63,803 nucleotides of DNA from Coriolopsis trogii (lineage: Eukaryota; Basidiomycota; Agaricomycetes; Polyporales; Polyporaceae). The DNA is taken from contig JAHYIO010000010.1 of NCBI GenBank assembly GCA_020543525.1, positions 1 to 63,803 on the forward strand, read 5' to 3'. Both the position numbers and the translations under genes were made by a program. Shown here one piece after another: positions 1,607 through 48,108 of this stretch; the stretch's first letter is position 1, and every line of letters starts with the position of its first letter. The notes under the pieces were generated by a model. That model saw only the letters and a list, made by a program, of their open reading frames with translations, was not told the origin of the DNA and did no database searches.

Positions 1607-2273
1607 TCACCTCGAGGTGTCAGTCAGCAATTGTGGCATTGAGCGCCCCGATGTACCGCAGGTTAAAAGTGCGTTGTCTTCAAGTGTACCGGACAGACGT
1701 AGTTGTGCGCACTTGTTGAGGATATAGGATAAATGCGCATTTGCAGAATGCCTTTTGACGGATGCTCACCTGCCATTGAAGTTCTGCGATTTGCTCTCGC
1801 AAGGATGCGATATCGTGTTGTGCGCCCGCAATAAGTACCTGACAACTTGTCAGTTGCGCACATGCTATACGGTGAAGTGAACACGATGCCTTGCACTGGT
1901 TGGTAGAAATACCACTGTAATTGTCCACCTCCCTGACGGGAAGTGACAACAGCGAGTGCTGGAGGAGCTGCTGGTGCAAACGATCGATACAATTTTCCAA
2001 CGCCGCTACGTATGCCACTCGTCTCTGACGAGGGCTTGTGACCGATCTATCAACTTGTCATGTACATACCCATCATGCAAACAAAGTCAAGCTTGACGTA
2101 CAATTCCTGCGTAGAGAAAACCAGCCCTTCCATCACAGGGTCCCTGCGAAAACGGGTGGGACTCGCCCTTTTCTTTGGCAGCTTATGCGCGGTGTCGTCG
2201 TCTTCGTCACGCCATTCAGATCCCGCGTTATGGGTGGAAGAGGTAGAAATGCTGCCTCGTTCGTCTCGATAAC
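1607..2273 (-). CDS. Coiled-coil protein, alpha subfamily (alpha-1)
   Basis: I do not recognise the family in databases, but it has a paralogue (alpha-2, 21.3-22.4 kb) and two more distant relatives in this window. Exons read on the minus strand are 2273-2102, 2046-1890, 1838-1770 and 1711-1607, and phases close from exon to exon. The protein has a basic stretch, then RVAYVAALENCIDRLHQQL, a predicted coiled coil, then an exon of exactly 69 nt beginning VLIAGAQHDI. The intron at 1839-1889 starts with GC, not GT. Its 51 nt keep the frame open, so the intron is inferred from the exon shared with the paralogues. A 34-codon tail exon ends at TGA 1607-1609. The 5' end is unresolved: the acceptor before 2273 needs an upstream exon I could not place. 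It is transcribed away from beta-1. A DNA-binding or dimerisation role is a guess. Confidence 0.6.
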
Positions 2274-2996
2274 CTGGTCATCATTGGCGTCGGCCATCGA
2301 CGCCTCGGCGTGAGTAGACGTTGCAGAGACATTCGAAAATGGGTCGAGGCTCTCGTACCAGTTTGTTTTTCGCGTGTCGCATTGTAAGATCAGAGCCCGA
2401 AAGTCGACCAGCGAGGAGTGGAAGAGTAGTGTAGGGCTTTCGCGTTGATGAGGTTATTGTTGAGGATTACAAGGAAAGAGCTTGTCGCCAAAGAGGTCGT
2501 TGAGGTCTTCTTAGAGAGGACAATGGGTGTGTGGGAGAGGCACGCAATTGGGAGGATAGGACCCCATGGATGGGGGAAGGCACTTCGGCCGCCAGGCATG
2601 CCATAATTTTTCAAACTGCGCCTGTGACTCGTGGGGGTTGCCCGCTACCCAGCTTCCACCACGTGCGAATAGGCACCCGCGTCTCGGTTTCTGCATTAGC
2701 TTGTGCATTATCATTTAGCAAGTCCTAGATTGAAGAAGATTATTCAAGTCCTCTCCATGTTGGCGATGAGGGCATGCTGAATATTATTCAAGTACAGACA
2801 CAAGTCGGTAGGGATAGTCTCTTAACCGACGGCGCAGTTTACGGGCAACACCGATGCACGACAGTCTTGTGACCCAGCGGCCCGATGTCATCCGCGAAGT
2901 CGCGAGTGCTTGTGTTGCACGGAACCTAAATGCCACTGATTGGGCCCATCATGTCCCCACCCTTGGTCGGCCTTCTTGCCACCACCTAGCGCGACT
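2274..2996. promoter_or_regulatory. Divergent intergenic region of pair 1
   Basis: About 0.7 kb separates the resolved 5' ends of alpha-1 (minus) and beta-1 (plus). It must hold both promoters and the unplaced first exon of alpha-1. I found no clear shared element with the equivalent region of pair 2 by eye. Confidence 0.4.
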
Positions 2997-4372
2997 ATGG
3001 ACATTGTCCATGGGCTCCCCGACCGATACTCTCAAACCCTATGCGGTTCTAATCACTGCGATACGACAGGAGATTGGTATGGGGCTGACGAGGTCGATCC
3101 GCTTATTGTTGAGGCGAACGCCATGGGAGAACACTTCTCAGTAAGTCTGTATTGCTCCGTGTTCGACCTCAATGAAGACCTGTAAGAATTGAAAACCTGT
3201 TAGCACGTCCCCGACTCAATATCTTGGGAGCAACCACAGGAAATACTCGCGATACCTGTATGGTTACCGGATGGATCGTCTGCCGCTTGGCCCGACAACG
3301 CTACTTTTCCATACATGTCAGCAGTCTCCTACAGCTCGTCCGCGGTGACAGGCTCTCCGCAAGTCATCGAGTGGGAAGAGTGGAACCCCTATTCCACACT
3401 AGCACAAGTCGCTGCTTGTGACGGTGGCAGCGAGACTGAGTCTATGGTTGCGCGCATGGGTACCACCGAGAACAACCGGAACCACAGTGCTAGAGTGGCT
3501 GAGTTCGTCGGTGACAACCGCGGCAGCGACGCTCAGTGCATGGCTCCCCCTACGGCAGCCAACGAGGATGAAAATCTGGCTACTTTTCCATACATGTCAG
3601 GAGTCTCCTACAGCTCGTCCGCGGTCACAGGCCCTCCGCAAGTCATCGAGTGGGAAGAGTGGAACCCCTATTCCACACTAGCACAAGTCGTTGCTTGTGA
3701 CGGTGGCAGCGAGACTGAGTCTATGGTTTCGCGCATGGGTACCAACGAGAACAACCGGAACCACAGTGCTAGAGTGGCTGAGTTCGTCGGTGACAACCGC
3801 GGCAGCGACGCTCAGTGCATGGCCCCCCCTAGGGCAGCCAACGAGGATAAAGATCGTCCACCACAAAAGCATAAAAAGTGGGAGTCCCTGTACAGGAGAG
3901 GTATACTTCCACCGCGCGCCGCTATGGCATTGTAACATGCACCACGTGAGTGTGATTCGTACCTATCATCCATCAGCAGGATCTCAAACAGTGTGCAGCA
4001 TGCACTTCAATGAGCGCACGAGGCAGGGGCGTTACATCGAGGCATTAGAGGAGCAAGTCAGACAGTTGCAAAGGCGCCTCGCCGACGCTGGAGTACAACC
4101 AGTCAAGGTAGAGCCTGTCCGCCTTGAACATTGTGTCCAAAGAGACTGTTTGAAGGTATGGTGTCGTACGAGTGCCTCCCCGCCTGTCATACTGATCATA
4201 TGCTGCAAACTGTAGAGAATACTGGTTCAGCAGCAAGCTGTGTTGCAGGAAGAGAGGCAGGCTAAGCTTCACGCCGAGAAAGAAGTGAGTGTTCCGCCAC
4301 GCTCACTTCCCCGTACGATGCTGATACTGCCATTCCAAGCTACGGCGTCTTCAGGACCTGGCTGCAAAGTGA
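2997..4372 (+). CDS. Coiled-coil protein with 93-residue tandem repeat, beta subfamily (beta-1)
   Basis: Family unknown; paralogue of beta-2 at 23.1-24.1 kb. The model is 2997-3140, 3204-3900, 3977-4155, 4216-4284 and 4340-4372, giving about 373 residues with all phases consistent (the acceptor of exon 3 could also be 3992). Exon 2 holds two in-frame 93-codon repeats. Exon 3 carries RQGRYIEALEEQVRQLQRRL, a predicted coiled coil whose opening resembles the linker-coil that follows Zn2Cys6 clusters, but no six-cysteine cluster is visible. Exon 4 is exactly 69 nt (begins RILVQQQAVL), as in all four relatives, and the last exon is short (LRRLQDLAAK). The start at 2997 is chosen because a short acidic first exon fits the paralogue; an in-frame ATG at 2940 is the alternative. 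Divergent from alpha-1. Function unknown. Confidence 0.65.
3300..3857 (+). repeat. Tandem 279-bp duplication inside beta-1
   Basis: Two direct copies at 3300-3578 and 3579-3857, differing at only a few positions. The period of 279 is a multiple of three, so the protein gains a second 93-residue block (each opens ATFPYMS and contains SETESMV and NRNHSARVAEF). The near identity points to a recent duplication. Confidence 0.95.
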
Positions 4373-4569
4373 TCGGTCATGTATATACCGTCAACGTGTC
4401 ATGACAAGACCTGAGAGTGGTGAGTATTACGTTGGTGTATCCTATGCATGAGTACCGTTCAGTGATATCGCAGTGCTCTATTACCATCATACCCTTTCCT
4501 CTAGTGTAAGTTCACTCAATGGATGCTTGTCACTAGGTTTTTGTAATCGGACATCCCGTCGCGATTGCG

Positions 4570-4830
4570 TTTTAGAGCTCCGCGCCGCCTGGCGTCTCTC
4601 TATCTCCCGTCATTGTTCCCTCTCTCGTAGTCGTCCCTCACGCCTTCGGACGCGCGCGCGCATGCGTCCGAACCTATTATACACTGAGCCTAGCGATTTC
4701 TGAGCCTCCAAAATGAGGTGAATGGTGCGAGTGCACTTGGGAGTGGGCGGTAGGTAGACAAAAAAGTCCCGAGGTTTAATAAACGACTTTTTTGTCCGAT
4801 TGTATATCGCTCGCCTTCCTTCTTGTGCCA
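4570..4830 (+). repeat. Dispersed repeat, copy 1
   Basis: This stretch aligns with about 31,380-31,640 read on the minus strand. Shared blocks include CCGTCATTGTTCC-like, GTCGTCCCTCACGCC-like and TTTGTCCGATTG-like tracts in the same order. I estimate about 75% identity by eye. At 31.4-31.8 kb the homologous sequence lies in a better open frame, so this copy may be a decayed gene fragment or a remnant of a mobile element. Confidence 0.65.
4757..4796. other. Perfect 12-bp inverted repeat (hairpin)
   Basis: GACAAAAAAGTC at 4757-4768 is repeated as its reverse complement at 4785-4796, with a 16-nt AT-rich loop. It lies inside the dispersed repeat. In the other copy only parts of the stem survive. 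Confidence 0.8.
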
Positions 4831-5432
4831 CCAGCAGCACAGTCCCCTCCGCCATCGCTTGCAGAGCAAGCTTGATGAAGAGCGTAGAGCTCACCGGTCC
4901 ATCGCACGATCCGAGACCCGTTTTCAATCTATGAAGAAAGACACCGACCGGGATGTCGCAAGGGCGTATGTCGCTCTTGCAGGACTCGACCGACGACCCC
5001 GAGCACCTCGAGGACACGCAAGAGTGCAACGAAGAGAAGCCCAAGAATGTGGCACGAGGGCTGAGGCACAGAAAGCCGCACGCGGTCCGAGTCGATGCCG
5101 ACGTCGGCGCTGGAGAGAGTAGGTTGGAAGGACGCACGACGGATCAGTCTTGCGAGGATGCAATGTGCACGTGGGAGGCCCGTGAGCGTGCGGAGGGCCG
5201 GAAGTTTTCGTTCCCGCACATATCCTCTAGCTGAAGGTCTACTGCTCACCAGATGCCTGTGCGAGGTCAGAGACCTTGGTGGCGTCGGCAGTCTTGAGGA
5301 AGACACTGTATAGTGTATGATGTCCATATGAGGATCAACGGAATAGTAGGTAGACACGCATCGAATAATGTATGTAGACATGCAGCAATTCCCCTATTGT
5401 ACGTACAGGCCATACTCGCCAAGCATGCAGAC
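4831..5432. other. Region with charged open frames, no firm gene
   Basis: On the plus strand, frames at 4823-5122 and 4953-5234 encode acidic and basic stretches (for example KLDEERRAHRS and STDDPEHLEDTQE) that could be exons of one coiled-coil protein. No splice pair I tried joins them cleanly. A minus-strand frame of 175 codons overlaps. I leave it unassigned. Confidence 0.3.
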
Positions 5433-7245
5433 TCACAAGTCCCGCATGAGGTACTTCGTTAAGCACTCGATCACCGCTTTTTTGATCTCTTCGTTCTGTG
5501 GGCCGTTCTTCAAGATCTCCCTCGCGAACGTCACTTTCTCTATCGAGATGTCCTTCTCCCTGTCCTTCCGCGCGTGTTCCGTACACGCCTTGTTCACTTC
5601 CACTTGTTGCTGCAGGATGTCCTTCAGCGACATGCAGACTCCCAAAATTGACTCGGTGACAGCGGTGAGGTGCGTGAGCGCATGCGTCGCCTGCATAGTT
5701 TGCTTGTGTGCACGAACATCACCGGAAGAGTTTTCGGGGAATGGTGATTGTCTCTGGCCCATCCCATTCATTGTAGCGACCTTCGAGGCCCGCGTCGTTT
5801 GCTGGCGTCGAAGGAGAGGCGTGCGGGGAATTGGACGCATTGGCTTCCGAAGAGCGGAGGTACGGGAACGATGGCCGTGACTGCACCGTCCTGCTCGATC
5901 CTGCCTGGCGGTAGTCGGAAGGTTGAGATGGCGGAGGGGAGTATGCGTATGGCGGCTGCGACTCTGCGACTTGATCAGAACCCTCCGGGCTTGCTTGCAT
6001 GCTGTGGCCCACCATGAGCTGAGGGTCAAACGTGCTGTGCAACCCCATCATCGCATTCGGTATAGACGACGGCGCCGGCCCAACAATTTGGTCGGTCGGC
6101 CCAGAATACGGTGATGGCAGGCCCGTCTTCGGGTCCTCGCAGTATCTGTATTTACGCAATTGAGCGAGCGTGTGGTTCGAGGTTGGCATACATGAGCTCA
6201 CCGTCTCTTAAATAAGTCGAACCAGCCAGATTTATACCAAATGTCTATGACCTTCACGTTCAGGTTGCCGACGTTCAAGCCAGCGACCCGCGCAGTTTCT
6301 AGCATAGCTTCAATATGTGGCTGCTCGGCGTTGGGGTTCTCCGCGTGGAGCTTCCGGAAGTGGTTGGCGGAGAATACTTGAAAGGCATGCATCTGCTTGA
6401 AGACTTCAAGGTTTCGGTTATAGCAACTCTTTAGCGCCGAGTACGACTTCCTCCCGGGGAAGAGTTCGCTTGAACACTGCCATGGCGAAAGTCAATCATT
6501 GATACGCGTACAACCACGAAGATATGATGCACCTCCCGGAACATGGTATTTGTCCTCGTCCGCAACGCGTCCCAGTGGACGTCACTTGCCAGCAGCCAAG
6601 TGAACAGCCGCGTTTTCTCCTCCACCGTCCAGTGTTTCGCGCCCCCACTGGTGGCCATGTCCAGGTCGTAGGTCTCCTCATCGTCCTCCTCCCCAGCGCC
6701 TGCTGCGGACACGCTCAAGCTTCCTCCCCCAGCGGAATGTCGTCGCTTCTTCCCGGCACCGTCAGGTGTAGCCGAATCGGGCTGCTTGCGCTTCCCACTC
6801 GCCGCAGTCGCGCTACCAGAGTTACTCCATGTTTCCTGTCCATTCAATATCGGCATGGCAGGCAGGGGCGACTGCTCTTCCTCTACTGCTTCCGTCTGTT
6901 GCGACTGTGGGTAATGTGGGTGAGAGTAGAGGAGCTCGGCCTTATGCGCGCTTCGGGGAGGGGGTTGGGATGGGATGGCATTGACGTTGTGCGCCGCGTA
7001 CCCGTCAGGACCGTGGGCTTTGCCGTTATATCCATAATTTCTGTCGACCGCGCCATATTGGCGTGCGTTCGGCTCCGTCTGATCACCCAGAGAGCGTTAG
7101 TAACCGCGCAGGCAGCAAAGGGGACACGGAACGGGGGCATTTGCATGTCATAGTGACTATCCGTAGGCGCCACATACGGGCACGCGCAGGGGAACTCCGT
7201 CACGCGCGGGTCTCCTATGTATGGCAATGTACTGGCCTCGACCAT
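5433..7245 (-). CDS. Myb/SANT-like domain protein
   Basis: Probable nuclear DNA-binding protein of a basidiomycete-expanded family. Exons on the minus strand: 7245-7126, 7078-6533, 6476-6202, 6145 to about 5720, then a last exon ending at TGA 5433. The first four joins agree in phase. After a low-complexity N-terminus with a basic KKRRHSA patch comes an acidic DDEETYDLDM stretch and then KHWTVEEKTRLFTWLL, a tryptophan-spaced helix pair of Myb/SANT type. Next come SYSALKSCYNRNLEVFKQM and a conserved KVIDIWYKSGWFDLF block. The C-terminal exon (ILQQQVEVNKACTEHARKD) looks like a coiled coil. The frame changes between the last two exons near 5,700-5,750 and I could not find an intron of the right length, so this may be a break. 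The first exon ends at a weak GTCCCC donor. The domain is also found in transposase-derived proteins. Confidence 0.65.
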
Positions 7246-8633
7246 CCATCCTAATCTCCCGCACCTGGGCTAAGCAGGGGGACTTTCTCAAGACCGACCA
7301 CTGGCATAGGCCTTTGCATTGGAGCTCCCTCATCTAAGACGGTGCACACATGCCGCGGTGACGAGACGAGACAAACGAGACGAACCTGCTGCATCTGAAC
7401 CGCGGCCAAGTGATTTGACGACCGGCCCATCACCATAGCTTGGGTGTGATATGAGTTGGACCAGGCTGCGACTGCCCGCTGCCCGCCACCGCTGGGGGTC
7501 ACGCCGGCATGGCTGATGGAACTGCGATGGGTGAGATACGCCGACGGAATGCCCGGGGCTGCAATCAGCGTCTACGAAGGGAAGAAGGCCGGCGTATTCA
7601 CCTCTTGGATAATGGCATGCTGGATCAAGCTCGAGAGTGGCGGGGTGGTTGGTCGTCTAGACGTGCATGTGGGTACCTTTTGATAAGGCCCGAGGCGCTT
7701 AGCGGCCCGGCTACGGTGCGCCCTCCCCATGCTACCACCATTCTCTCCCGCCGAGGCAAGCCTAGAGGAGAGCCGCTGTGGTCGGAACAGCTGTGTTGCA
7801 AAAATGCGACAGCGCATGCGTGCAGTTTACTACACCAGCACTCGAGACTCATTCAAGCTCAGTGCCAGCGACCGAGTACCAGACCTGGGAAGGGAATTCG
7901 AAGAGTCCATGGGGCGAATACATGGTCCGCGGTTTTTCCCACAGCTACGCGTCGGATGGGGCCCACGCCATCAGGCTGTGTTATCGCGCAACTGCGGACT
8001 CGTGTGTGCCGGCACCACAACGTACGTAGGAGGCGGTATGGTTAACCCACCCACTTACCTCAATATCATTGTCAGGCAGTAACACTACAGGCGCGTCTCA
8101 ATGGGTTTTTGATGGTCGCTTAGGAGGAGGGTGGCTTGTACGTAACGCAGCCCTGAGCGCATCGCAGACACGCTTCCCTCAATGCGGAGTTGGGTGAACT
8201 GGACCACGGCGTGCATCGGGCGGAAAAGCGGATTGGGGAAGGCTTGGACCCTCCAAGGAGGTCCGTACCTATCGTGATGGACCCCGTGGAAGGGTAGTAT
8301 GAGACTGAACCTTAACTCGTTTAGGTGGAGGTCTGAACCTTACGTCAACTAGGCATGTGCTGGAGAAGTGAACGTTATCTTCATTAGGCATGTCGGAGCC
8401 TACTGTGGCACCGTGGTAGGAGCTATGCGACGAGTGGGTGGGCAACCAGAGGAACGTTCGTGCATAGGACTGTCTGTGTTTCCGGCCTTCCGCCTTTTCC
8501 TACCCGCTTGTCTCTCTTGGTGCAGCAGGTCCTCTCCGCATAACGCCATTGTGAGGCTTGTTGCAACAGGGTACGTCCGCGTTCATGGAAAGGACATGGT
8601 ATGGTGTTGAAGGGTCGCTTTATACGCGCAGTC
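7246..8633. other. Unassigned region between Myb-like and CstF64 genes
   Basis: A plus-strand frame at about 7456-7683 contains AAISVYEGKKAGVFTSW, faintly like the N-terminal hybrid-binding domain of fungal RNase H1 (short xYxGxxxGVFxxW motif), but what follows does not fit. Minus-strand frames at 7251-7502 could be upstream exons of the Myb-like gene. Nothing is firm enough to call. Confidence 0.3.
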
Positions 8634-10233
8634 ATGAGCAAAGTGGTCTTCGGTACTATTTGGCTTTTGGACCTCTGTCTATCACTAAGTCATGCGTTCA
8701 CGCAGTTGGAAATGTCCCGTATAACATGTATGAAGTGAGTACAGGTGTACACTTCTCTGTTTGAGCTGTTACCTCATGACAATCTTGCAGAAACAACTCA
8801 TGGATTTCTTCGACTCGGAAGTCGGTGACGTACTGGGCGTAAGGTTCGTGTCTCCAAATGCACTTACCGATGATATTGCCATAACGTCTCTTATATGTCA
8901 GACTCCAGTTCGATCGAGACAAGGCAAGAGGGTGTGGCTATTGTGAATTCAAGAGTGGGTCAATATGACACGACGTAGGAAATGGCATACTCACTTTTCC
9001 ATCCTGGTCAGACGAACGAGCCGCTCGAGCCGCGGTAAGAAGAGTGGACGGGAAAACAATCAGCGGACGGAGGTTACGAGTCAATCTCGCTGAACCTGAT
9101 CCTCTGTACGAGGGCATGACAACGGTGCGCGGCCAAATTGTCGAATTCCCGTTGGACCCCTCCTCTCGGGGTAGACGTAACAGCGACCGACGAGCATTAC
9201 ATCAAGAGCCGGATTCAGGTCGTGGGCGCGAGAGGGATGCTGAACAGGAGGGAGAACAGCGCCGGGAGCACGATGGAGAGCGCGATGATGACCGCGAGCG
9301 CGAGCAGAAGCAAGAGCAGTGGTCCTCAAGATCCCGACGTGAATCGCTGACTCCTGCCCGAGTTCACGCATGGATGGAAACACTGCCTCAAGGCATTCCT
9401 CTCGAACACGGCAAGACAGCCATCCAGGCCATCAATAATCTCCTTGCAAACACGCATCCCAGCACACTATTCGCTGTGTTAGCAGAGATGCAGGTGGAGT
9501 TCTGTTGTGTTTCACTCTGTGGACGTACTGCTAACCGAGTTCGCGCAGTCTCTTGTGCGTACACAACCTGACGCAGCAAGCACACTGTTAGAAGCTACTC
9601 CTCAGTTGCGGTACGCATTGGCACGAGCGCTCACGGTGCTCAATGTCGTTAGCGACATGCAGCCGGAGGTATGCATCTACTACATCACCTGCGTCTGCTG
9701 CGCCGTTTATCCACCTGACGTCCACCTCTACCGGTAGTACACCCCTCACATCGCCGAAATGGCAACTCCTAGTAATCAATCGCCCTCAGTCGCCAACGGC
9801 TTCTCCACTCCCACCTTGTCAATAGCTACAGTCTCCAGTTTGCCGCACTCGCATACTTCGCAAAACCGGTCCACCCTTGTCATGCAAGATACGGTAGACG
9901 CTATTGCGCAGTCCTATCAAGCAGCACAAAGCAATCTATCAGGAGTGTTTATCCACTTCCGGCGGTGCAACCGCCACCGAGTGTGTCCACGTTTCTCACA
10001 TATTCACCAGTACCACAACCGCCTCACCCGACCGAGTTTTTGATGCACCCCTCAATGCCCACACTACGAGCAACGAGCACATCTGATACGCTAGCCTCAG
10101 GATTGACTGATGAAGAAAGGGTGAGTTCATTGGTTTATCTACTGCTGCGCGAACGATCATAACCTCATGTCTTGTCCCGTGACAGAGAACCCTCATAGAC
10201 ATTCTACGCGTCATCCCACGCCTCCTGCAGTAG
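8634..10233 (+). CDS. Cleavage stimulation factor subunit 2-like (CstF64/RNA15 type)
   Basis: RNA-binding subunit of the mRNA 3'-end cleavage and polyadenylation machinery, acting in the nucleus. Exons 8634-8652, 8706-8734, 8791-8843, 8902-8954, 9012-9493, 9549-9668, a middle exon from 9738, and 10186-10233. The N-terminus is one RRM: RNP2 VVFVGNVPYN, RNP1 ARGCGYCEF, ending at ISGRRLRVNLAEPDP. A charged Arg/Glu/Asp-rich linker follows. Then comes the CSTF2 hinge domain (TLPQGIPLEHGKTAI, then PQLRYALARALTVLNVV), which in the family binds CstF77/RNA14. The C-terminus is short: GLTDEERTLIDILRVIPRLL could be a reduced three-helix CSTF C-terminal domain. The frame changes between about 9,870 and 9,960, and no unique intron explains it. 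Spacing of small RRM exons is typical of basidiomycete genes. Several RRM residues differ from the usual fungal sequence, so this may be a diverged second copy. Confidence 0.85.
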
Positions 10234-11038: not shown

Positions 11039-11990
11039 CTACGGTAACTCCTGGAGACGACGCGCACGCTTACGCGCCGGCGAGCGACCGCTGATGCTCC
11101 CATCTCCGCTGCTGTTCTTCAGAGCGTTCGTCTCACGCGGGCCGCCTTTCTTCCTGGACGCCTCTGCTCCATTGCGCTCCTCCTTTTGCTTGTTCTCCTG
11201 CTTATCCGTGATCTTCTGCAACCGCGTGGCCACCACATTTCAGCGAATGATGAGCATCGCACATTAGGAAGAGAGGACGAGCCTTAGCACTTCTCAGGAT
11301 CATTTTGCCTCCCGATAGGCCGGCAGTACTACTTCCCGCCAGAGTCGTTTTGGTCTTGCTACCTGGAGGCCGCCCACGTTTGCGTTTTGTAGGAGCCTCC
11401 AACGGAGGCTGGTCTGTGAGTGAGACAGCGATGGTGTCGATCAGTGCATTGCCTACGTTGGGTCTGTGGGAGACCGGGCGCGAGGATTACTAACCAGACC
11501 CTGCGTGGCCATTCGCGACCAAAATCTGCTTGTTCTTGCCGCCTGGAGGCCGCCCGCGTTTGCGTTTGGCAGAAACCTCCGACGACGGCGACCGGGCTGT
11601 GGGGCGCAGAGTGGTCTAGTCGGTCACTACCTCTCATATGTAGCGTCAATGCGGTGCAGGGTTTGAGAATGACTGACCAGACTCTAGCTGATCTTGCATG
11701 TCTTTGTCGCTGATCAGAGTGGCCGCGCCGTTTCCGGCTATAGGGAGGGGCCAAGCAGACATGGAATAGCGCAGGTAGGACACAGAAAGCGGACGAACGG
11801 GGTGGAAGAACGCAAGAGCGCGTTTTAACCAGGCAGCCAGACTTCTCACGCGCCGAGCGCCCCCCTGGAACCTTATCTGTGGAAGAACGTCCACACGTAT
11901 TCGTGCCCGTCTTCTGGATTTCCACAACGTTATTCCGTTCTCGGCATGTATTCCCCCTCCCACGTTGTGTCTCATTGAAGGATCTCACGT
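11039..11990 (-). CDS. AT-hook protein with duplicated hook exons
   Basis: Likely a nuclear protein that binds the minor groove of AT-rich DNA. Two exons read on the minus strand, about 11596-11500 and 11413-11291, each begin after a CACAG acceptor. Each encodes a proline-rich lead followed by KRKRGRPPGxK, the core AT-hook (RGRPPG). A lysine-rich last exon, 11215-11039, starts KITDKQENKQ and ends with KRARRLQELP then stop. Upstream frames to about 11,990 (AGNGAATLISDKDMQDQLE) may be earlier exons. The join from hook 2 to the last exon does not close in phase with any donor I found, so boundaries are approximate. The similarity of the two hook exons and their introns suggests an internal duplication. 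Confidence 0.6.
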
Positions 11991-14639: not shown

Positions 14640-15795
14640 TCATTGGAAGGGGCCAACGGTGGGATTATTGACAACCTGTCTATGACGTTGGTGGATGAAA
14701 TGCTGTAAGACGGGTGTCTCACGTACAGGCGTGTCATGCATGGCATGGACAAGGGATTGAAACGCAGGCGATTGCCTGAGCTCTGCCAGAATCCGCGTGA
14801 CCCAGACCTCCCACGGACAGGGGATGGGAGCCGTAGGCGTGAAGTAGGGGAGTACGAATTGCGTACCGGCGAACGGATGAGGCGCAGGCGGAGAGGAGAA
14901 TACGTAGACCGAGAGCAACAGCATAGCTTGACCTCCCGTGTTGAGGGTGCCGTTGTATGCCGGTAAGGAAGCAGACATATCTGCCCTCAGAGTTATGAAT
15001 TCTCCAGACCTACGCAGAAAGCACACAGTGAGCCGATGACGAGTGTTCTATCCATACTGAAGAAAACATCACTTACCGCCCGAATCCTAGAGAGACGGAT
15101 CGTCTGTGACAATGGTGGTTCAGCAAGTAGAAACTATATGCGTAGAGGGTTATACACTCACATGCCTCGAGCTGCGAATTGCGCGGTTTTGCACTCCGAT
15201 CTGCAGAAAGAGCGGATAATTGTTTCAGACAACCCCTGACATGAACAATCGCCCATGTATAAGACAAACTGCAGAGAGGATAAGTCTGCGTATGCTTACA
15301 TCGCCAGGATACTCATTCCAGTAACATTTCATGATGGGCGCGTTTTCATGAATGTCTATGCCGTGCGGCGCGGGGAAGTTCAACCATTCGAGGTCGGCGC
15401 GACGAGCGTCATCCCATCGCAATGGGGCTACGGCCTGCATGTAGTCCACATAGAGAGTGAACGGCATCTGGCGGATATTGTGTATGTGAAATAAGGGCGA
15501 GCAGCAACGGTTGGGGCGGCGTGGAGGGCAGAATGAGAGACAAGTGGAAGATGGAACATGCATGAGTCATTATATATCTCGAACGATTTCTCACCTCGCG
15601 GAGCGCATGGCATGCGTCGAATTGCCTGCGCGGATGACCTCCGATGTGCTGAGATCTCGATAGAACGGTATCCAGCTAATATGGAAACATCATGCATGCC
15701 TTGTCGGGGTTTGCAAGCATTGCTCGAGCATACTATCCGTCTGCTTGGTACACCCAATCTGGGTTCTTAGGCGCAAAAAATATCGCGCTCCGCAT
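14640..15795 (-). CDS. Unrecognised multi-exon protein
   Basis: I do not recognise this protein. It appears to start at ATG 15795 (MRSAIFFAPKNPDWVYQADG), followed by a good GTATGC donor and a second exon with YWIPFYRDLSTSEVIRAG. Further exons include MPFTLYVDYMQAVAPLRW to NEYPGD at about 15472-15300, two very short exons near 15.1-15.2 kb, and a last exon with PCPWEVWVTRILAELRQSP ending at 14640. The sequences look coding, with aromatic and charged residues evenly mixed and clear GTAAGC, GTGAGT and GTAAGT donors. However, exon 2 leaves phase 2 while the MPFTL exon needs phase 0, and only one acceptor exists between them, so the gene may carry a 1-nt lesion. Confidence 0.5.
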
Positions 15796-18000
15796 GGCAC
15801 TCCGATGCAACACAGCACCTTCGCTCGTTGAGTCGTAGTTTTGGTACTTCATTGGCGAATCCGCGCCACTGCGCCCACAGTCCTTCCAGTCCTCCTAAAC
15901 CGGATCACCGTGTACTCCGTACTCCTTAGATGACGCGACCTAAGCGGCGCTGTCGTTCGGCAAACCAAATGAGACACCGCAGGTCTGTGACTAGCCGTGG
16001 CAAGGGTGGGCTTGGCTGCGAGACTACACAGGGGCTGGGCTTAGAACGGAGTTTGGATCAATTACTCCGCATGCGTCAACCGACAGGAGATCTGTGAAGA
16101 TTGACAAAAGCTGTACATCGCAAAGTCAGCCTGGATTGAGTCATTGCATGCGGTATTGGACGACTTCAGCTCATCTCCATTGCATCCCGACTTGCCTGGA
16201 TGGTACATGCGACGATCGATTGCCAGCCAATGGACGTTCTGGGATACGTGGCGATATTACTTCGTTCTCAGGGAGGTCCGGAAATGAAACGCTAATGGAA
16301 AGAAGGGCGGTAATGCATGAACAAAATGAAGGTGGCCCGATAAGCGCAGTCCGTATAAAGACCGTGGGGCTCATGTGATCATGCTCGGCCAATCATAGCG
16401 TGCCAGGGTTCACGGCCTCTGTTCACGACGGGCAATTCCTGGCAGGGAAAGCACAAAATCTGTTGGACTTTCTTTGCCACTTGCCAGGGAATTGGGTGAT
16501 GTCAATTGGCTATCCTTGCCATTCTGCACCCATTTCCTTGCCTTCCCTTTGTACCGGCCTGTGCTGGAAGGGGAAATGTACAAGCAATGTAAGGGACATA
16601 TGAGATTTTTGTAGCAAGGAATGGGCTCGAAACATGCATAACCGGATAGATGTCAGCGCCATTTCGTCCGCCATTTCCCTCGACGAGACTCGGCGCTTTG
16701 CCCGTCGTGCTTCTTCCTTTCTGTGCGTATGAGCAACCAACAAAAGGTGGGCACGTCCTTGCCTATATCGCTCGAGAACCAGTCCGTCACGGTCAGCCAA
16801 TACAAAGAGATGCACGACAGAGTCTGAGTCCGCTGACGTACGGCTCGGCTTCTCTTCTCTTGGAGCAGCGTTTCGCTCCCAAGAAGTCGCAGATATGACG
16901 GGCATCTGATAGAGATGCATTGATGAGAATGACACGAAAGCCAGCAAGGTCGAAGTTGCCAATGCCGTTACGCTGCAGCAGTAACGTCGGAAGCTTTTGA
17001 GTAATGCCGTAAAGTATACGCAATCCAAGGGAGGAGCGAACGATACAGTCAGCGACGAACGAGACCCCAGTCATGTACAGAGTCAGCAGCGGGTAGAGAA
17101 GATGCAGGTGGGAAATTCACACGGATGTACGGGAGCATTGCAGCCATCGATGCGACGTGCTGCGGCGCCGTACATGAAGAAAGCGGACCGAACGTGCGGG
17201 CACCGATGGTGCGCGCGAGAGTGACCTTGATTAGCCTTGATCAAGGACAAGGTGCATACGTTCATAGCAAGAGCCCGGCCCCCGAGTCTAGGCTTTGTGG
17301 TCAGCGTGTAGCAGGACTTGTACGCTCCGAAATTCCGAGGAGGGAACGCCGGAGTAGATTGAATGCTCGACGAAGGCGAGACAGCGGCTGATACCGACGT
17401 TTGCTACGGTTGGTGGGTGTACCGGTCTTGCTCGCAAGTTCTCTGTCGCGTGAGGAGGACGTGTCGCGCGCGACGCGTCCCTAATTTACCTTGTTCCTCC
17501 TCCCCCTCCCGTCTGTGTTTGCTTTGTCGCCTATCTACTTTGTGTCGCTTATCCTTATATGTCTCTTCTCCCGCTTCTGTCTCTCTGGCTCCTCCTTCCT
17601 CACCGACGTGCGCTGGAAAGGACCGTAGCTGCGCAAAGTTCCCATCCTCATTCCGTGATTGAAAGGCCCGAGGACTTGGAGATTTACACTCATCCATCCG
17701 CTTTGCTCTTATCAGACGCTGGCTGCATTTTCGTCGATGAACTCCAAACCTACAGAACTGCACTCCATCGACATAGCTCACTTCCTATTTCTCTATATGT
17801 CTACTCAACGCTTCGTATTAGTTCCCTGTATGCACTTCGCTGCCGCCGGCTTGCCCTCGGCCCCTCCGGGTCAAGCGGGAGCGCCAGTGACGCGACCCAG
17901 ATCGGCGCTCTCCCGCGGTGCTGCGCGGCAATTACATCGGCCTTTGCCCTGCTCGACTGACGCGTGAATAGACCGCATTGAGGCCTGGGCGGATGCGCCG

Positions 18001-18015
18001 TTAGGGTTAGGTTAG
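18001..18015 (+). repeat. Short interstitial telomere-like motif
   Basis: TTAGGGTTAGGTTAG, about two and a half copies of the TTAGGG unit used at most fungal telomeres. It is too short to be telomeric and may be chance or an old end-joining scar. Confidence 0.6.
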
Positions 18016-18653
18016 TTTGGCACCCGCGGCCTTCCAAGGCGCGCCCGTCTACACTATCGCGCGAACCAGGCTTCAGCGTGCTCTGCCCCTCATCTCCGTC
18101 CTACTGGTCAGGCGCATCAGCTTCTCTCGGACTACCTGAAACGCCACTATTTCCTACTGATCCCGGTCGCTTTGCAGTGTACTACTCAGTTAACTTCTTT
18201 TTCCGCGAATATATTTCTGCTGTAAGTAATCCCGCTCAAGCTCGATCTGAACATCACGCCGTCTTTCGCCTAGTCAGCGGCGCAGTACCTTGGCACACTT
18301 CAACGCACCGCCCGCTCACCAGGCTGTGTAATGTCCCCCATCCCGTCCACACTCGTGCCGAAATGGAGCTCGGTCTCTGTATCTGCATTTACGTCGGGCC
18401 GTCCTGACGTCCGCCTGCTCTCACGTCCGCGTATGTGCTCCTCGTTCTCATACGATGAGGCCGAAACAAATGTAGAAATCTTCCCACATACCCGTTCTGT
18501 TGAAATCCGTATAGAGCATATACTAAATATACATTGGGAAGACCCCTGTTTCCCATCATCCTGGTCATATGTTTGCCAGGGCTTCCGCCTTGGTTGACAC
18601 CGCTTCAAACACCGAAGGCCCGACCTCTTGCGGGCGCGTTTATATTCCACTCG

Positions 18654-18710
18654 GCCCAGAAGGTCCAGAAGGTCCAGGAGGACCTTCTGGGCCTGCGGCG
18701 CCGCAGGCCC
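18654..18710. other. Compound GC-rich palindrome
   Basis: Two nested inverted repeats: GCCCAGAAGGTCC at 18654-18666 pairs with 18680-18692, and a 22-bp perfect palindrome centred between 18699 and 18700 follows at once. Both could form strong hairpins. Confidence 0.85.
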
Positions 18711-18927
18711 TCGGTAATTCCCACATAGGCTCCCACAGCCTCGGTTTGAGTTCTCAGAACGGTCAAAGCGCAAAAAACCCCGGCCGCATCGACGAAAATT
18801 GCACAGTAGTTACTCAATATACAGGAGAAGACAATTCCATGACGAGTCACTTGAATCCGATATACAAACGTAACAATCTCCAGTGCTAGCGGTAATACAG
18901 ACATTGGCCATTGTGATAATCCAAACA

Positions 18928-20322
18928 TTATGACTCAACTTCGCGTCCGGGTGGTGCGCAGTGCTCAATGTACACGTCCCGCCATTTCACTATAGCAGTT
19001 GCCCTGAATGGCTGGAGTACGTCGTTCGCCTGACCCAGGGCAATGAGTCGGGGCGAGACGCCGTAGCTCGTAGCCCACACGCTACGATGTCTTGCCCCGA
19101 CTTTGAAGCGGGGCACGGTTGGGTCATGCGATTCGGATGAAGGCGAGAGGAGAAGGCCTAGCGCCATGCCGTCACAGAACCAGGACAAGATGGCCACGGT
19201 CTGTCCGGCGCATTTGACCAGGGGTAAGTGCGCTCGAATACCATAAGGAGTGATGGAAAAGGTGGGAACGCCGTAGTGGCTCTTCTTGGCTGACTTTGGG
19301 CCCTGGCCATTGTGCTATCAGACGCATAGCGATATCATACAGTTTGACCTTACCCCATGGAATCTCTTGAGAATAGCCAGTAAGTGTGACTTGTCTGGTG
19401 TCGGCGGGACAGGCATGATGTGTAGGAGACCGCCGCAATCCCGGAAGGCGGAAGGCGCAGGAGCAAACAGATAGCGCTCGTGCATTGAAAAGGAAGTGGA
19501 TGCACTCTCTGCAGGGGTAGCCGCTACCTCGGAGGTGAGCCAGCGGCTACCCCATGCAAAGAGCGTTGTGTCTGCGCAGCGCTGCATGATCTCCTCTTGC
19601 AGACGTTGGAATGCACGGTATCTTCCTTCCCCATATCGTACGCACATGGTGATGAAGAACAGCCCCACGAGGCAATAAGCTTCGTCCTCTGGGCGCGTGG
19701 TATGGCGGTCCGCGGCCCACGACATTCTAGCCGCGACACTGACGGATTGCAACTCTGTCTCAAACCTCAGTACCTTTACCGGAATGGCGGTGATCTGCTC
19801 AATGATGTGCGCAAGGTCTGCCTTAGAGCCAATTATTTGCCATTCTCGGTTCAGGAACAGAAGATTACGAGGGAAAATGAGTTCTTGCAGGGTCCACCCG
19901 CGCTGAAACCATCGGCTGGTACGGAATGCCGCCATGAAAGTGGTCTCGTCTTGGCATGCGGACCGTGGTGGCACGTCGTTCAGGTACGCATAGCAGATGT
20001 CTGCATTGGCATAGAACTTGCGCATGGAGTTGATTCCCTCGGAGAGCTCGGCGCTGCTCTTTTGGTCAATGCAGCATGTGTCATTCCACATCCAGTCATA
20101 TCCATTGGCCTGGGCGACCATGCACGAGTGCTGGACTTTTGCCGACGAAAAATCACGCGGACTCTGGTATGACGTCATACACTTGATCCGCAGTGATTCC
20201 GTCGCTTGGAATGATTGCTCATTGGAGTCCCATACGTGTGACAGAATCGCATAACGAGCCGGTATGCTTTGCGGTGACAGGAAGTGGTGTAGCTCGGCGC
20301 GATTGGTACTGAGGAGCCACAT
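18928..20322 (-). CDS. HET-domain (heterokaryon incompatibility type) protein
   Basis: Belongs to the fungal HET family (PF06985), whose members trigger cell death or growth arrest after non-self contact; many paralogues have unknown roles. The gene has two exons, 20322-19354 and 19302-18928, joined in phase 0 by a 51-nt intron, giving 447 residues. HET motifs are complete: ARYAILSHVW at residues 23-31, YDWMWNDTCCIDQ near 75-87, and SRWFQRGWTLQEL at about 136-148. The C-terminal part ends with IVKWRDVYIEHC, a conserved closing block of basidiomycete HET proteins. No NACHT, TIR-like or repeat domain is attached, so this is the HET-only class. It lies between the two alpha/beta pairs, just upstream of the minisatellite at 20.5 kb. 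Confidence 0.93.
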
Positions 20323-20482
20323 CAGTCAGTTCAGTAGGGGCAGCCGGGGGCGGCAACGCGCGTCAAAGAAGTGGCGGCGGAGGGAGAGAACGAGTGGCGA
20401 GCGTCTAACGGACTATCTTATCTGCTGCCGCATTAGGGCATACAGCACACCGGGATCGATCCTGCCTCCTTGGCGGCCAGGC

Positions 20483-20656
20483 GCTGACACTCCGCTCACA
20501 CCAGTGACACTCCGCTCACACTCCAGTGACACTCCGCTCACACTCCAGTGACACTCCCCTCACACTCCAGTGACACTCCGCTCACACTCCAGTGACACTC
20601 CGCTCACACTCCAGTGACACTCCGCTCACACTCCTGTGACACTCCTGTGACACCCC
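20483..20656 (-). repeat. 22-bp minisatellite, locus 1
   Basis: About eight tandem copies of CTCACACTCCAGTGACACTCCG with few changes. Each unit is two 11-bp half-units; on the minus strand the half-unit reads AGTGTSACTGG-like. The same repeat family occurs at 47.9 kb in the opposite orientation. Confidence 0.95.
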
Positions 20657-21344
20657 CCCACATCCCAATTGCAAACCAAATGCCGCGGCCGTCATGTTGA
20701 CAGAAGACACATTACGCGATAAGGACGGCTAAAACATCTCTCTCTCCCTTATACTATGCCTGGTAGTGTGTACCAACTCGCAGAGGTAGGATGATACATG
20801 TGCCCGCATGAGGAAACACGTTATTCTCCGTAGAGAGCCCGATGTCAGAACAATCCTGGGAGATAATGAGTGGGTGGCCATTCTCTCGACGGAGACAGAT
20901 TCTCTCGAAGGACTCTCCGGGAATTGCCCGAGTCACAGTAGTATTTCGTTAGGATCATAGCTGTATAACCGCTAAGCGTAATTGATGCGGACACTTATCA
21001 TAGATATTACCAGGGTGCTCCTTAGAGAGCGCCTCGAGAGACAGGCGGATCCCTCGAGAGAATGCATCTCTCGGTGTCTGCTGCGTGTTACCAGTGCAGC
21101 GCACGAAACGGCATCCTGTCCTCACTTCGGACACCTTCACTTGCCTAGTGGTCGTCTACATCGCCTACCTTCATGATAATATGTGAGATACCTCACCTAT
21201 GGATCATCATATAATCAGAGGACACGCGATGGATACCTAGGTTATATCGTGGCCACATTGGATGCATGGGCTGTCCGAGCGTGAGCCAGGTGCACGCCTC
21301 ACGCACGTACGTATTCCGAATGGCGTGAAAAATAAATCTAGATG
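20657..21344. other. Gap without recognised gene
   Basis: Short frames only (60-64 codons). No domain or terminal repeat seen. Confidence 0.5.
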
Positions 21345-22444
21345 CTATGAGACGCCTTCATCCATCAAACTACGCATCGCAAGCAACGTACAACAGCTTT
21401 TCACAACATCCTCAATGTCATCCTGAAGTCAGAACACTGTGTGCAAAGACTAAGTCGACAACGCTGATTGAGAGATCGTTATGGCCTTACTTTGTCTTCC
21501 ATTTCCAGTGTCTTTCGGCGTATAGTCGTGAGATTGTGTTGCCCCTCAGCTATCAACTTCTAGAGACCGATGAGCGGGCTATGCTTGGGCAGTTCACAGA
21601 TGACTCGCCTTGCAATGCTCATAAGCAATATTATCATATTCATCAACCTCTTCTTCGGATACGAATGGGATTGAATGCTGGAGAAGCTGTTCGTGCAATC
21701 GTTTGACATAGGCCTCTAACGCAGCGATATACTGGTGTCGCTTGTGATACCGTCCAGGTTTTCTGGGAGGGACAGTCGTGAATTGACAGTCATAATAATG
21801 GAATGGATGAGAAGGCCGCACAAGTCGGTTTGGCTCAAAAACAGGCATTCCAAACAATCAACCAACGTCGAATGCCTCACCCGACGATGACGACGACAAC
21901 GTCGGGCTCGATCCTCTGCCTCCGGTGTCGACGCGGCGTGGCATACCCGCTCCCTACTATCAGACTCCCGGTGACTCGGTCCGGAAACAGCATTGGGTTG
22001 CGGTAGCTGCTCTACCCCGTTGACGGGGAAGGCCGGCACCTGCGAACGTCGCTCTGGGCTACCTGCTTGACTGGCTTGCTGGGAACTGTTAATGTGAAAG
22101 TGTAGAACGTCGGGGATCAGGCATGCCTGCGCGCTGGACGACACCGAATCCGCGGGAATCGCGGACCCCGGACGGCCGAGCGGATGTCCCCATGGCGAGG
22201 GGCTCGAATGCGGCACCAGAGGGACGTGCCATTCGGAGTAAGTCAGTCCACCTCCGCAAGGCGGTAGAGTAGCATGCAGGGACGGCGGAACCAATGGTCT
22301 GCGCCGCAATGGTTGGGTGGTGAAAAGCGGTTGTGGCGGCGGCGACATTCGGCTTCCGGCTGTACCTGCGTGAAAATCTGCCTGGTAAGGAGACGAAGGA
22401 AAAAACGTACCCATGGCGTCGGCTTCCAAAGCGGATTGTCTCAA
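21345..22444 (-). CDS. Coiled-coil protein, alpha subfamily (alpha-2)
   Basis: Close relative of alpha-1. Minus-strand exons: from about 22444 (in-frame ATG at 22414) to 21881, then 21833-21609, 21559-21491 and a last short exon whose acceptor is ambiguous. The first exon encodes ALEADAMGTFFPSSP, similar to VEANAMGEHF in beta-1, then a proline/serine-rich region ending in RRCRRHRR. The next exon carries RYHKRHQYIAALEAYVKRL and LHEQLLQHSIP, aligning with alpha-1 (AALE, RLHxQLLQHS, EVDxY, CK). The 69-nt exon begins KLIAEGQHNL. The 49-nt intron before it starts GCGAGT and ends TCTAG. Reading through it hits a stop, so it must be spliced, which makes a GC-AG intron here well supported. The true first exon upstream of 22444 was not found. 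Function unknown. Confidence 0.65.
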
Positions 22445-23091
22445 TAAGTGAGGGACAGAGAGTCACGAATGCGAGTACGTTGGGTAGAATATGCAGCTGG
22501 ATGAAGGGCGGGGGGGAATACACGGGGAGTACACGGGGAGGACTCTTTCGCACAGTCCTGATAACGCTTGCCTCGAAAGGTATTTGATATTCAAGGTGGC
22601 GCCATGGCCTGAGCATGCACAAGGTCTTTCCCATGGCGGATGCCGCCCCCTGTATACTCAGCGGCCACTGTCAGTAGTCACTATGCTCATTGCAATTGTG
22701 GGCACATAGCGAAGAAGGCCCGCTGTAGAAACCAGTACGCCAGTGATGTCCAGAGGTGCGTCGCAGCCTGGCAAGGTCGATACCGTGGTTAATAGTGCTC
22801 CCTTTCCTCAGTACCTAAACGGTGGACAATTTGCGTGGCATGATGTTGAGAGTATTTGACGCAACACGGCCCGGCGCAATGGAGCAGGCGTGAGGTCCAC
22901 GCGCGACTTGGTGAACTTCTGACTAATCCGCCAATGCCAACCCTGTGCCCTCCACCTTCTCGACCAAACCACCACATTCCCCGGTCACTCGAGCTATCCG
23001 CGTGGCCCCTTAGCACTCCCGTCAGCCTCATCTGCACCTCCACCCCCCTTACTGCTCGACGGTGCCACGCAGTACGCCTCGCCAACAAGCT
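22445..23091. promoter_or_regulatory. Divergent intergenic region of pair 2
   Basis: About 0.65 kb between the alpha-2 and beta-2 start regions, the same spacing class as in pair 1. It should hold both promoters and perhaps the first exon of alpha-2. Overlapping frames here show no domain. Confidence 0.4.
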
Positions 23092-24064
23092 ATGAACATT
23101 ACTCTGAACCCCATGGAGACACCGCTGGAACTCGATGTGAGTGTACTTTCTGCTGGTTTCGTGGACTCCAAGCATTCATAATGTTAGTTACAAGGTGCGC
23201 TCACACCGCATGAGGCCGCACTGGAAGAGAGAATTTTTCAAGAAATTATTCGTGATGACGCGTGGTCGTCGCCGCCTGTCGACTCTTCCACTCCGATGCT
23301 GGAGGCAACCGAAACGCAACCACCGCCGATCGTGTGGTACGCACTGCTGTTATTACAGGAAATGCAATGGACGACATCACAATCTAATCCTGAGCCCGCT
23401 GTCGGTGCGACGGCGTGGGCAGGAGCCCTTCCTTCGACGGCCACGCACACCAGGTGCAGTTCGGAGAACGTGTCTGGTAAATACCGCAACATGGGCACCC
23501 AGTATGCAAGCCCTCACTATGGAAGAGCCGAAGCTACCCAGAATGGAGGCGATGGGTTTGCCCGCCGACATGGCATCATTGCCTGTAACAGGTCAGTGCA
23601 ACCGTCGTCGACCGCTTCCGGCCAGCTTGTGAAGGCCCGTCCCAGGGGAGGTATGAGCTCACAGCATGAGGAGGATTGTTATGTGGAGGCGTTAGAGGAA
23701 CACGTCCGAAGCATACAAGGCCAGCTCAGCGCAGCCGGTGTGCCACCCGCGGCATTCTCGACTCCGGCCTTATCGAGCTTCACAGACAACATCTCCCTCC
23801 GGGTACGCGAGAACTGCACTAGGCTTACGATACTTGTTCTTCTGACCCTCGGCAAATACAGAGAGTGTTATTCCATCAACGGGCCCTCTTGAAGACAGCA
23901 CGAGCGGAGCAACTACGCGTCAAGCACAATGTAAGCTCTATGTCAGTCTTGACATTGGATGGGCTGGCTGAGTTTCTCCGTGCCTTCCTTAGTTGACGAC
24001 TTATCAAGATCTGGCCGAATGGAAGCGGCAGCTACGCAGGGGCATGTATTACTCCTCATGGTGA
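23092..24064 (+). CDS. Coiled-coil protein, beta subfamily (beta-2)
   Basis: Paralogue of beta-1 without the 93-residue repeats. Exons 23092-23136, 23188-23802, 23862-23930 and 23993-24064; every intron is phase 0 with GTGAGT, GTACGC or GTAAGC donors, giving 266 residues. A 15-residue first exon (METPLELD end) precedes an acidic stretch (HEAALEERIFQEII). The coiled-coil region is EEDCYVEALEEHVRSIQGQL, then SAAGVPP, matching LADAGVQP in beta-1. The third exon is again exactly 69 nt, beginning RVLFHQRALL, and the last exon has YQDLAEWKRQLRRG, matching LQDLAAK in beta-1. The gene is transcribed away from alpha-2. I see no zinc cluster, bZIP basic region or homeodomain. Nuclear or dimerising function is inference only. 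Confidence 0.7.
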
Positions 24065-47885: not shown

Positions 47886-48108
47886 GAGTGTCACTGGAGT
47901 GTTACGAGAGTGTCACCGGAGTGTTACGAGAGTGTCACCGGAGTGTTACGAGAGTGTCACCGGAGTGTTACGAGAGTGTCACCGGAGTGTTACGAGAGTG
48001 TCACCGGAGTGTTACGAGAGTGTCACCGGAGTGTTACGAGAGTGTCACCGGAGTGTTACGAGAGTGTCACCGGAGTGTTACGAGAGTGTCACAGGAGTGT
48101 CACGGAGT
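47886..48108 (+). repeat. 22-bp minisatellite, locus 2
   Basis: About ten tandem copies of AGTGTTACGAGAGTGTCACCGG, made of 11-bp half-units AGTGTTACGAG and AGTGTCACCGG. It is very homogeneous. Because 22 is not a multiple of three, all three frames stay open and give a fake repeat protein; I do not call a gene here. From 48,109 to 48,511 I see no gene. Confidence 0.97.

What the first reader, a model, noticed from the sequence alone, without database searches (positions are those of the whole stretch)
1607..24064. Duplicated divergent pair of coiled-coil genes (alpha/beta) with matching exon architecture
Two loci about 19 kb apart each carry a minus-strand alpha gene and a plus-strand beta gene, transcribed away from each other. 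alpha-1 resembles alpha-2 (shared AALE, RLHxQLLQHS, EVDxY, CK) and beta-1 resembles beta-2 (YxEALEExV, AGVxP, xQDLA). All four share the Y-[IV]-x-A-L-E coiled-coil opening and an exon of exactly 69 nt after it. So a divergent pair, itself probably born from one gene, seems to have been copied as a unit. Divergent pairs whose products pair with each other are the layout of HD1/HD2 mating-type genes in basidiomycetes, but no homeodomain is visible. A two-partner recognition or regulatory system is a testable hypothesis, not a conclusion.
Basis: partly seen in the sequence, partly recalled or inferred. Interest (0 to 1): 0.88.

Follow-up and report, generated by a model that had tools for sequence, protein, structure and literature searches.

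The report
Head-to-head coiled-coil gene pairs, duplicated
This fungal DNA carries two copies of a pair of related genes that point away from each other and may make two partner proteins with a short zipper-like helix; a third such pair sits elsewhere in the same genome, so the pair is a real inherited unit whose function is not yet known.

The parts
1607..1711 (-). alpha-1 last exon
   Evidence: spliced model; frame intact in C21 and C9
1770..1838 (-). alpha-1 69-nt exon
1839..1889 (-). alpha-1 GC-AG intron after the coil exon
1890..2046 (-). alpha-1 coil exon, 157 nt, entered at phase 2 (YVAALENCIDRLHQQL)
2102..2297 (-). alpha-1 N-terminal exon, start codon uncertain; one base (at 2272) missing against C21, C22 and C9
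2298..2996 (.). intergenic region of pair 1 (putative shared promoter region)
   Evidence: coordinates; no word of 10 or more bases shared with the pair-2 intergenic region
2997..3140 (+). beta-1 exon 1 (ends at phase 0)
3204..3945 (+). beta-1 exon 2 (ends at phase 2 in C21); one base (at 3894) missing against C21, C22 and C9
3300..3855 (+). 279-nt (93-codon) tandem duplication inside beta-1
3999..4155 (+). beta-1 coil exon, 157 nt (YIEALEEQVRQLQRRL)
4216..4284 (+). beta-1 69-nt exon
4340..4372 (+). beta-1 last exon (LRRLQDLAAK)
21345..21422 (-). alpha-2 last exon
21491..21559 (-). alpha-2 69-nt exon
21560..21608 (-). alpha-2 GC-AG intron, same position as in alpha-1
21609..21762 (-). alpha-2 coil exon, 154 nt (YIAALEAYVKRLHEQL)
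   Evidence: helix predicted over residues 2-28 of 51, pLDDT 95 and 87 in blocks 11-20 and 21-30
21822..22414 (-). alpha-2 N-terminal exon (6 nt longer than in C21, C22 and C7, in frame)
22415..23091 (.). intergenic region of pair 2 (putative shared promoter region)
   Evidence: coordinates
23092..23136 (+). beta-2 exon 1 (ends at phase 0)
23188..23591 (+). beta-2 exon 2 (ends at phase 2), ARRHGIIAC matching ARRYGIVTC of beta-1
23646..23802 (+). beta-2 coil exon, 157 nt (YVEALEEHVRSIQGQL)
23862..23930 (+). beta-2 69-nt exon
23993..24064 (+). beta-2 last exon (LTTYQDLAEWKRQLRR...)

Best explanation
A gene family whose unit of inheritance is a head-to-head pair: one alpha and one beta gene, themselves ancient paralogs, sharing an intergenic region of about 0.7-1.4 kb. 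SHOWN from sequence: the homology, the common exon plan, the repeated divergent layout, constraint on the coil and 69-nt exons, and origin by copying of the whole pair. INFERRED: both proteins are nuclear (basic clusters 31-45 residues before the coil in 5 of 6) and pair through the short helix as alpha:beta heterodimers; the acidic beta N-terminal part acts on transcription or chromatin; the shared intergenic region keeps the two subunits in step. The two window pairs are old, diverged copies that probably took on their own partner choice or expression.
For: Phases 2-0-0 with 154-160 nt then 69 nt in 6 of 6 genes. A third intact divergent pair on C1. One search, with the C1 beta, lists 6 rows: 4 are the gene itself, the other 2 (C33, E 0.001; C20, E 0.0026) both lie 2.3-2.7 kb from an alpha match in divergent orientation (alpha E 0.034 on C33 and 3.8 on C20; E 0.06 on C33). 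Tree: alpha/beta split 99-100, beta-1 with beta-2 90-99. pS 0.75-0.89 against pN 0.39-0.49 in four comparisons. alpha-2 and beta-2 intact in 4 of 4 contigs read, and a 6-nt difference in alpha-2 keeps the frame. A helix in the alpha-2 coil exon. Basic clusters, and acidic beta N-parts (K+R/D+E 5/23, 10/38, 5/15).
Against: No test of dimerisation or nuclear location. Heptad signal marginal: 225 of 5000 shuffles reach the coil's column mean, single genes 0.0085 to 0.23 of shuffles, and none in the 69-nt exon as a whole (955 of 5000). No recognisable DNA-binding domain. Intergenic regions share no more words than shuffles. The C33 and C20 pairs could not be read; the C20 alpha was seen only, and queries alpha-1, beta-1 and beta-2 found neither C33 nor C20. 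Among alphas the tree puts alpha-2 outermost (76-88), not alpha-1 with alpha-2. Alpha N-parts are not sharply different: alpha-1's short one is acidic too (3/8), and S+P+T+Q+G make up 46, 34 and 48% in alphas against 41, 34 and 38% in betas. beta-2 has only RRH at -21.
Confidence: 0.5

Rival explanations
1. An HD1/HD2 mating-type locus or a relict of one.
For: Same layout: divergent paralogous genes in several paralogous pairs; for HD genes this is stated in PMC8686365 (passages only).
Against: No homeodomain in any of 6 proteins. Homeobox_KN has one hit, on C20; of 14 PF00046 rows none lies on C7, C9, C10, C21, C22 or C34 (lists are of best candidates, so lower bounds). A Peptidase_M3 hit lies 1.4 kb from a homeodomain at C1:2.337 Mb, the probable HD locus, about 0.48 Mb from the C1 pair. 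All 18 STE3 rows lie on C4. Contig versions of the window locus differ by about 0.1% in SNPs.
Confidence: 0.03
2. Derived bZIP transcription factors that lost the basic region.
For: Y-x-x-x-L-E opening and short zipper; a weak bZIP_1 match of an alpha-1 fragment (E 0.22, 12.1 bits against a cut-off of 27.6); basic residues before the coil.
Against: N-x7-R in the bZIP register is missing in 6 of 6 (residue -14 is H, T, Q, Q, C, C; beta-2 has one N-x7-R at -28, out of register). No bZIP match for any of the 6 full proteins. The conserved part before the coil is a different motif (RKxWxxxLExLVFTPHE-like).
Confidence: 0.2
3. Two homodimers that merely travel together because they share a bidirectional promoter.
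For: Each clade keeps its own conserved C-terminal pattern; head-to-head genes are often simply co-regulated (general knowledge, not tested).
Against: The partners are paralogs with one exon plan and travel together in at least 3 and probably 5 pairs, which is more than promoter sharing requires (inference).
Confidence: 0.2
4. Decaying duplicates without function in the window, with only the C1 pair working.
For: Frameshifts in alpha-1 and beta-1 in contigs C10 and C22; strong divergence from the C1 pair; tandem arrays and insertions around.
Against: alpha-1 and beta-1 intact in C21 and C9, alpha-2 and beta-2 in 4 of 4 contigs read; pN well below saturated pS. Single-base differences near contig ends look like sequencing errors (inference).
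Confidence: 0.1

Closest known systems
HD1/HD2 homeodomain gene pairs of the basidiomycete HD (A) mating-type locus
   Same: Divergently transcribed paralogous partners, several paralogous pairs, basic (NLS-like) clusters, a dimerisation segment expected (HD features from PMC8686365, passages only).
   Different: No homeodomain; the coil is C-terminal, whereas HD partner choice is N-terminal; not at the probable MAT loci; little difference between the contig versions at hand.
bZIP transcription factors (Pfam PF00170)
   Same: Short leucine-rich helix opening with Y-x-x-x-L-E, basic residues upstream.
   Different: No N-x7-R basic region in register; hydrophobic a/d positions seen for only about 2.5 heptads; a conserved pre-coil motif and a constant 69-nt exon after the coil.
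Snowball (snb1) family
   Same: Considered because it is a family first described among unannotated agaricomycete genes (PMC10949477: abstract, outline and section 8).
   Different: SNB1 is predicted to have seven transmembrane helices and a DUF6533 region; no relation seen.

Membership tests
HD1/HD2 mating-type genes | homeodomain | tested here: not met
   no Pfam homeodomain in 6 of 6 proteins; no W[FY]xNxR motif in 6 of 6
HD1/HD2 mating-type genes | divergent transcription of two paralogous partners | tested here: met
   pairs in the window and on C1; probable on C33 and C20
HD1/HD2 mating-type genes | flanked by the MIP (Peptidase_M3) gene | tested here: not met
   14 Peptidase_M3 rows on C1, C20 and C30, none on C7, C9, C10, C21, C22 or C34
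HD1/HD2 mating-type genes | high allelic diversity | tested here: inconclusive
   contig versions differ by about 0.1% in SNPs, but they may not be two nuclei; no population data
HD1/HD2 mating-type genes | non-self heterodimerisation | not testable with these tools
   no complex could be modelled or assayed
bZIP | basic region N-x7-R in fixed register before the first zipper leucine | tested here: not met
   0 of 6 in register
bZIP | match to PF00170 or a related profile above cut-off | tested here: not met
   0 of 6 full proteins; one fragment at 12.1 bits against 27.6
bZIP | leucine zipper of four or more heptads | tested here: inconclusive
   only +1 to +15 after the tyrosine were tabulated; a helix of residues 2-28 in one exon, without the 69-nt exon

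The most novel reading that the evidence does not exclude
A second, homeodomain-free two-partner system in a basidiomycete: paralogous alpha and beta subunits kept head-to-head, multiplied as whole pairs so that several alpha:beta combinations are possible in one cell, with partner choice set by the coil and 69-nt exons, used to tell nuclei or cell states apart.
Probability: 0.12. Interest if true: 0.85.

Novelty: new variant of a known kind. Interest (0 to 1): 0.6.

Why it matters
Divergent paralogous partners multiplied as pairs are the layout described for HD mating-type genes in the passages read (PMC8686365). The same layout in a family with no homeodomain, no Pfam family above cut-off and no convincing PDB relative asks whether the layout itself, not the homeodomain, is what selection keeps: dosage-matched heterodimers free to swap partners after duplication. 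It gives six readable genes with fixed exon boundaries that a mushroom group can test by two-hybrid and knockout.

Tried and rejected
Searches that led nowhere. Prokaryote and viral collections, alpha profile only: 120 and 96 stretches matched a pattern, none was confirmed. PDB by sequence for the C1 alpha and beta: best E 0.06 and 0.63, judged chance. Shared promoter words: none of 10 or more bases between pairs 1 and 2, one of 10 in each comparison with the C1 intergenic region, below the shuffle mean. Six literature searches (listed 15 of 141, 12 of 453, 10 of 35, 8 of 11, 10 of 47 and 4 of 5 papers): no listed title or abstract start describes this family. I saw listings only, plus passages of PMC8686365 and the abstract, outline and section 8 of PMC10949477; this is not proof that the family is undescribed.

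Rejected readings. (a) The near-identical pairs on C7, C9, C21 and C22 as extra gene copies: they are alternative contigs of one locus, 99.4-99.9% identical. (b) The C34 match to alpha-1 at 75% identity as a new paralog: C34:1-1610 is 99% identical to window 600-2207, so it is the same locus; notebook entry 5 says otherwise and is corrected in entry 6. (c) My first splice models for alpha-2, beta-1 and beta-2 (and as queries) were replaced after the C1 genes showed the phase-2 intron before the coil exon. Notebook entry 2 places the 6-nt difference at 21867 in an intron; in the final model it is in the alpha-2 first exon. (d) Snowball family.
Full report
WHERE THE WINDOW LIES. The window is a complete contig (C10, 63,803 bp) of an unnamed 38.8-Mb, 39-contig genome. 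Clustered STE3-type receptors on C4 and introns of 49-68 nt in these genes fit a basidiomycete (inference). The same stretch is also covered by contigs C21, C22 and the ends of C7 and C9, in order C9(reversed) - window - C7, at 99.4-99.9% identity, and C34:1-1610 equals window 2207-600 at 99%. This is one locus assembled several times, not several copies. C21 and C22 share 13 of 56 variable sites against C9 and C10 (window 1.8-20.6 kb) and 17 of 38 against C7 and C10 (20.7-30.4 kb), or 0.07% and 0.18% of sites; SNPs only. This suggests two haplotypes, but C7 sides with C21 and C22 at 6 sites between 12.3 and 20.6 kb, so the contigs are mosaic or partly mis-assembled, and larger insertions exist.

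THE FOUR GENES. Minus-strand alpha-1 (1607-2297 or a little further upstream) and plus-strand beta-1 (2997-4372) point away from each other, as do alpha-2 (21345-22414) and beta-2 (23092-24064). In all four an intron of phase 2 precedes a coil exon of 154-157 nt, a phase-0 intron follows, then an exon of exactly 69 nt, a phase-0 intron and a last exon. Both betas have a short first exon ending at phase 0. Both alphas use a GC-AG intron after the coil exon. In this contig alpha-1 and beta-1 each miss one base that C21, C22 and C9 have; they are intact in C21 and C9, broken in C10 and C22. alpha-2 and beta-2 are intact in 4 of 4 contigs read. The models are not checked by RNA; their support is the conserved phases, lengths and protein matches.

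HOMOLOGY. Smith-Waterman Z against 1000 shuffles: alpha-1/alpha-2 24.4, beta-1/beta-2 27.7. Alpha against beta in the window alone is weak (1.0-4.7), as is the C1 alpha against beta-1 (1.1) and beta-2 (3.7), but the C1 beta bridges them (5.9-6.7 to the three alphas; 8.0-9.6 to the two betas). A profile comparison of three alphas with three betas gave probability 73.6% and E 2.9e-5. In the coil and 69-nt exons synonymous differences are saturated (pS 0.75-0.89) while pN is 0.39-0.49 (four comparisons): the genes code for protein, are constrained, and the copies are old. Against: the 69-nt exon alone, in register, shows no clear alpha-beta similarity in most combinations (9 alpha-beta comparisons: Z -0.5 to 2.7).

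MORE PAIRS. An own-genome search with alpha-2 found a diverged gene on C1. Reading C1:1,857,600-1,863,500 gave an intact alpha (exons 506/157/69/30 with the stop codon; the script cut the last exon one base short) and, 1.4 kb away and divergent, an intact beta (exons 24/572/160/69/126), with the same phases. Searching with this beta gave two further places, C33:422,379-422,495 and C20:2,283,024-2,283,203, both minus strand. Each has a plus-strand alpha match 2.7 or 2.3 kb away: C33:425,219 (E 0.034; 0.06) and C20:2,285,477 (E 3.8 only). Queries alpha-1, beta-1 and beta-2 found neither place. Each match is weak alone; both non-self beta places falling beside one of the three other weak alpha places, in the same divergent order, is unlikely by chance in 38.8 Mb (my rough estimate, about 1e-7). 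The third weak alpha match, C34:1,993,126 (E 1.24), has no beta match on its contig. The letters of C33 and C20 could not be fetched.

COPYING AS A UNIT. In two alignments of six genes the alpha/beta split has 99-100% support and beta-1 with beta-2 90-99%. So alpha and beta parted before the pairs multiplied, which is what copying of a whole pair predicts. Within the alphas the tree puts alpha-2 outermost (76-88), while identity (44% against 32-33%) and the shared GC-AG intron group alpha-1 with alpha-2; the order is unresolved.

WHAT THE PROTEINS LOOK LIKE. No Pfam family passes its cut-off in 6 of 6 proteins, and the C1 alpha and beta have no convincing PDB relative by sequence. The conserved part begins with RKMWNHALEKLVFTPHE in the C1 alpha and RKAYFRSVSDNVGFTITD in the C1 beta, then the coil, with hydrophobics at +4, +8, +11 and +15 after the tyrosine in 6 of 6 and at +1 in 5 of 6. 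AlphaFold on the alpha-2 coil exon, with the four window exons as alignment, gives one helix over residues 2-28 (pLDDT 95 and 87 in blocks 11-20 and 21-30; mean 74.6, pTM 0.43) and a low-confidence rest. The heptad signal is marginal for the coil (225 of 5000 shuffles) and absent for the 69-nt exon taken over all six (955 of 5000). Beta N-terminal parts are acidic; so is the short one of alpha-1, while those of alpha-2 and the C1 alpha are not markedly so; Ser/Pro/Thr/Gln/Gly content overlaps. Basic clusters lie 31-45 residues before the coil in 5 of 6, at -21 in beta-2.

MECHANISM. Most likely the two products pair as alpha:beta heterodimers in the nucleus and act on gene expression, with head-to-head transcription keeping the subunits balanced. 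Shown: anatomy, homology, repeated layout, constraint. Inferred: heterodimer, nucleus, regulation. The intergenic regions (699, 677 and 1380 bp) share no more words than shuffles.

NOT A MATING-TYPE LOCUS. Homeobox_KN has one hit, C20:1,964,386; 14 PF00046 rows lie on C1, C20, C28 and C33. A Peptidase_M3 hit at C1:2,336,726 stands 1.4 kb from a homeodomain hit, as MIP does beside HD genes (PMC8686365, passages). All 18 STE3 rows lie at C4:842-889 kb. None of these is on the window's contigs. The C1 pair lies on the same contig as the probable HD locus but about 0.48 Mb away; the C20 pair is about 0.32 Mb from the Homeobox_KN hit.

VERDICT. The HD parallel is one of layout only. From memory I believe similar hypothetical proteins occur widely in Agaricomycetes, but no call tests that.

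Noticed in passing
window 3300-3855: beta-1 carries a tandem duplication of 93 codons, 13 nt differences between the copies in C21, pS 0.06 against pN 0.04.
   Followed up: partly
window 20485-20645 and 47885-48109: Two 22-nt tandem arrays about 27 kb apart whose units share GGAGTGT on opposite strands; the C22 and C7 alignments break inside the second.
   Followed up: no
window 19321-20325 (-): HET (heterokaryon incompatibility) domain ORF between the pairs, next to pair 2 (E 7.8e-15).
   Followed up: partly
window 8969-9568 (+): ORF with a CSTF2 hinge match (E 1.3e-4, 22.8 bits, below the cut-off of 27), perhaps a cleavage-stimulation-factor gene between the two pairs.
   Followed up: no
window 6201-6491 (-): Weak HMG-box match (E 0.0091, below the cut-off) in an ORF beside pair 1.
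   Followed up: no
window 11339-11409 and 11519-11589 (-): Two 71-nt repeats, 77% alike and 180 nt apart; the first codes for KRKRGRPPGSK in an open frame, which resembles an AT-hook (the motif name is recalled).
   Followed up: no
L035-L036 (C22:28983-35485), L036 (C22:36112-37729) and L046-L047 (C7:19230-20847): Insertions of about 6.5 kb (C22) and 1.6 kb (C22 and C7) relative to the window near window positions 30.8 and 31.4 kb.
   Followed up: no
window 62992-63699 (-): ORF with a weak Pif1 helicase 2B match (E 0.0072, below the cut-off), perhaps a mobile-element helicase end.
   Followed up: no
window 2340-2381 (-) and 3057-3101 (+): The frame upstream of alpha-1 and exon 1 of beta-1 share a CDT...WY...DP-like pattern; may be chance or a trace of the common ancestor.
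   Followed up: no
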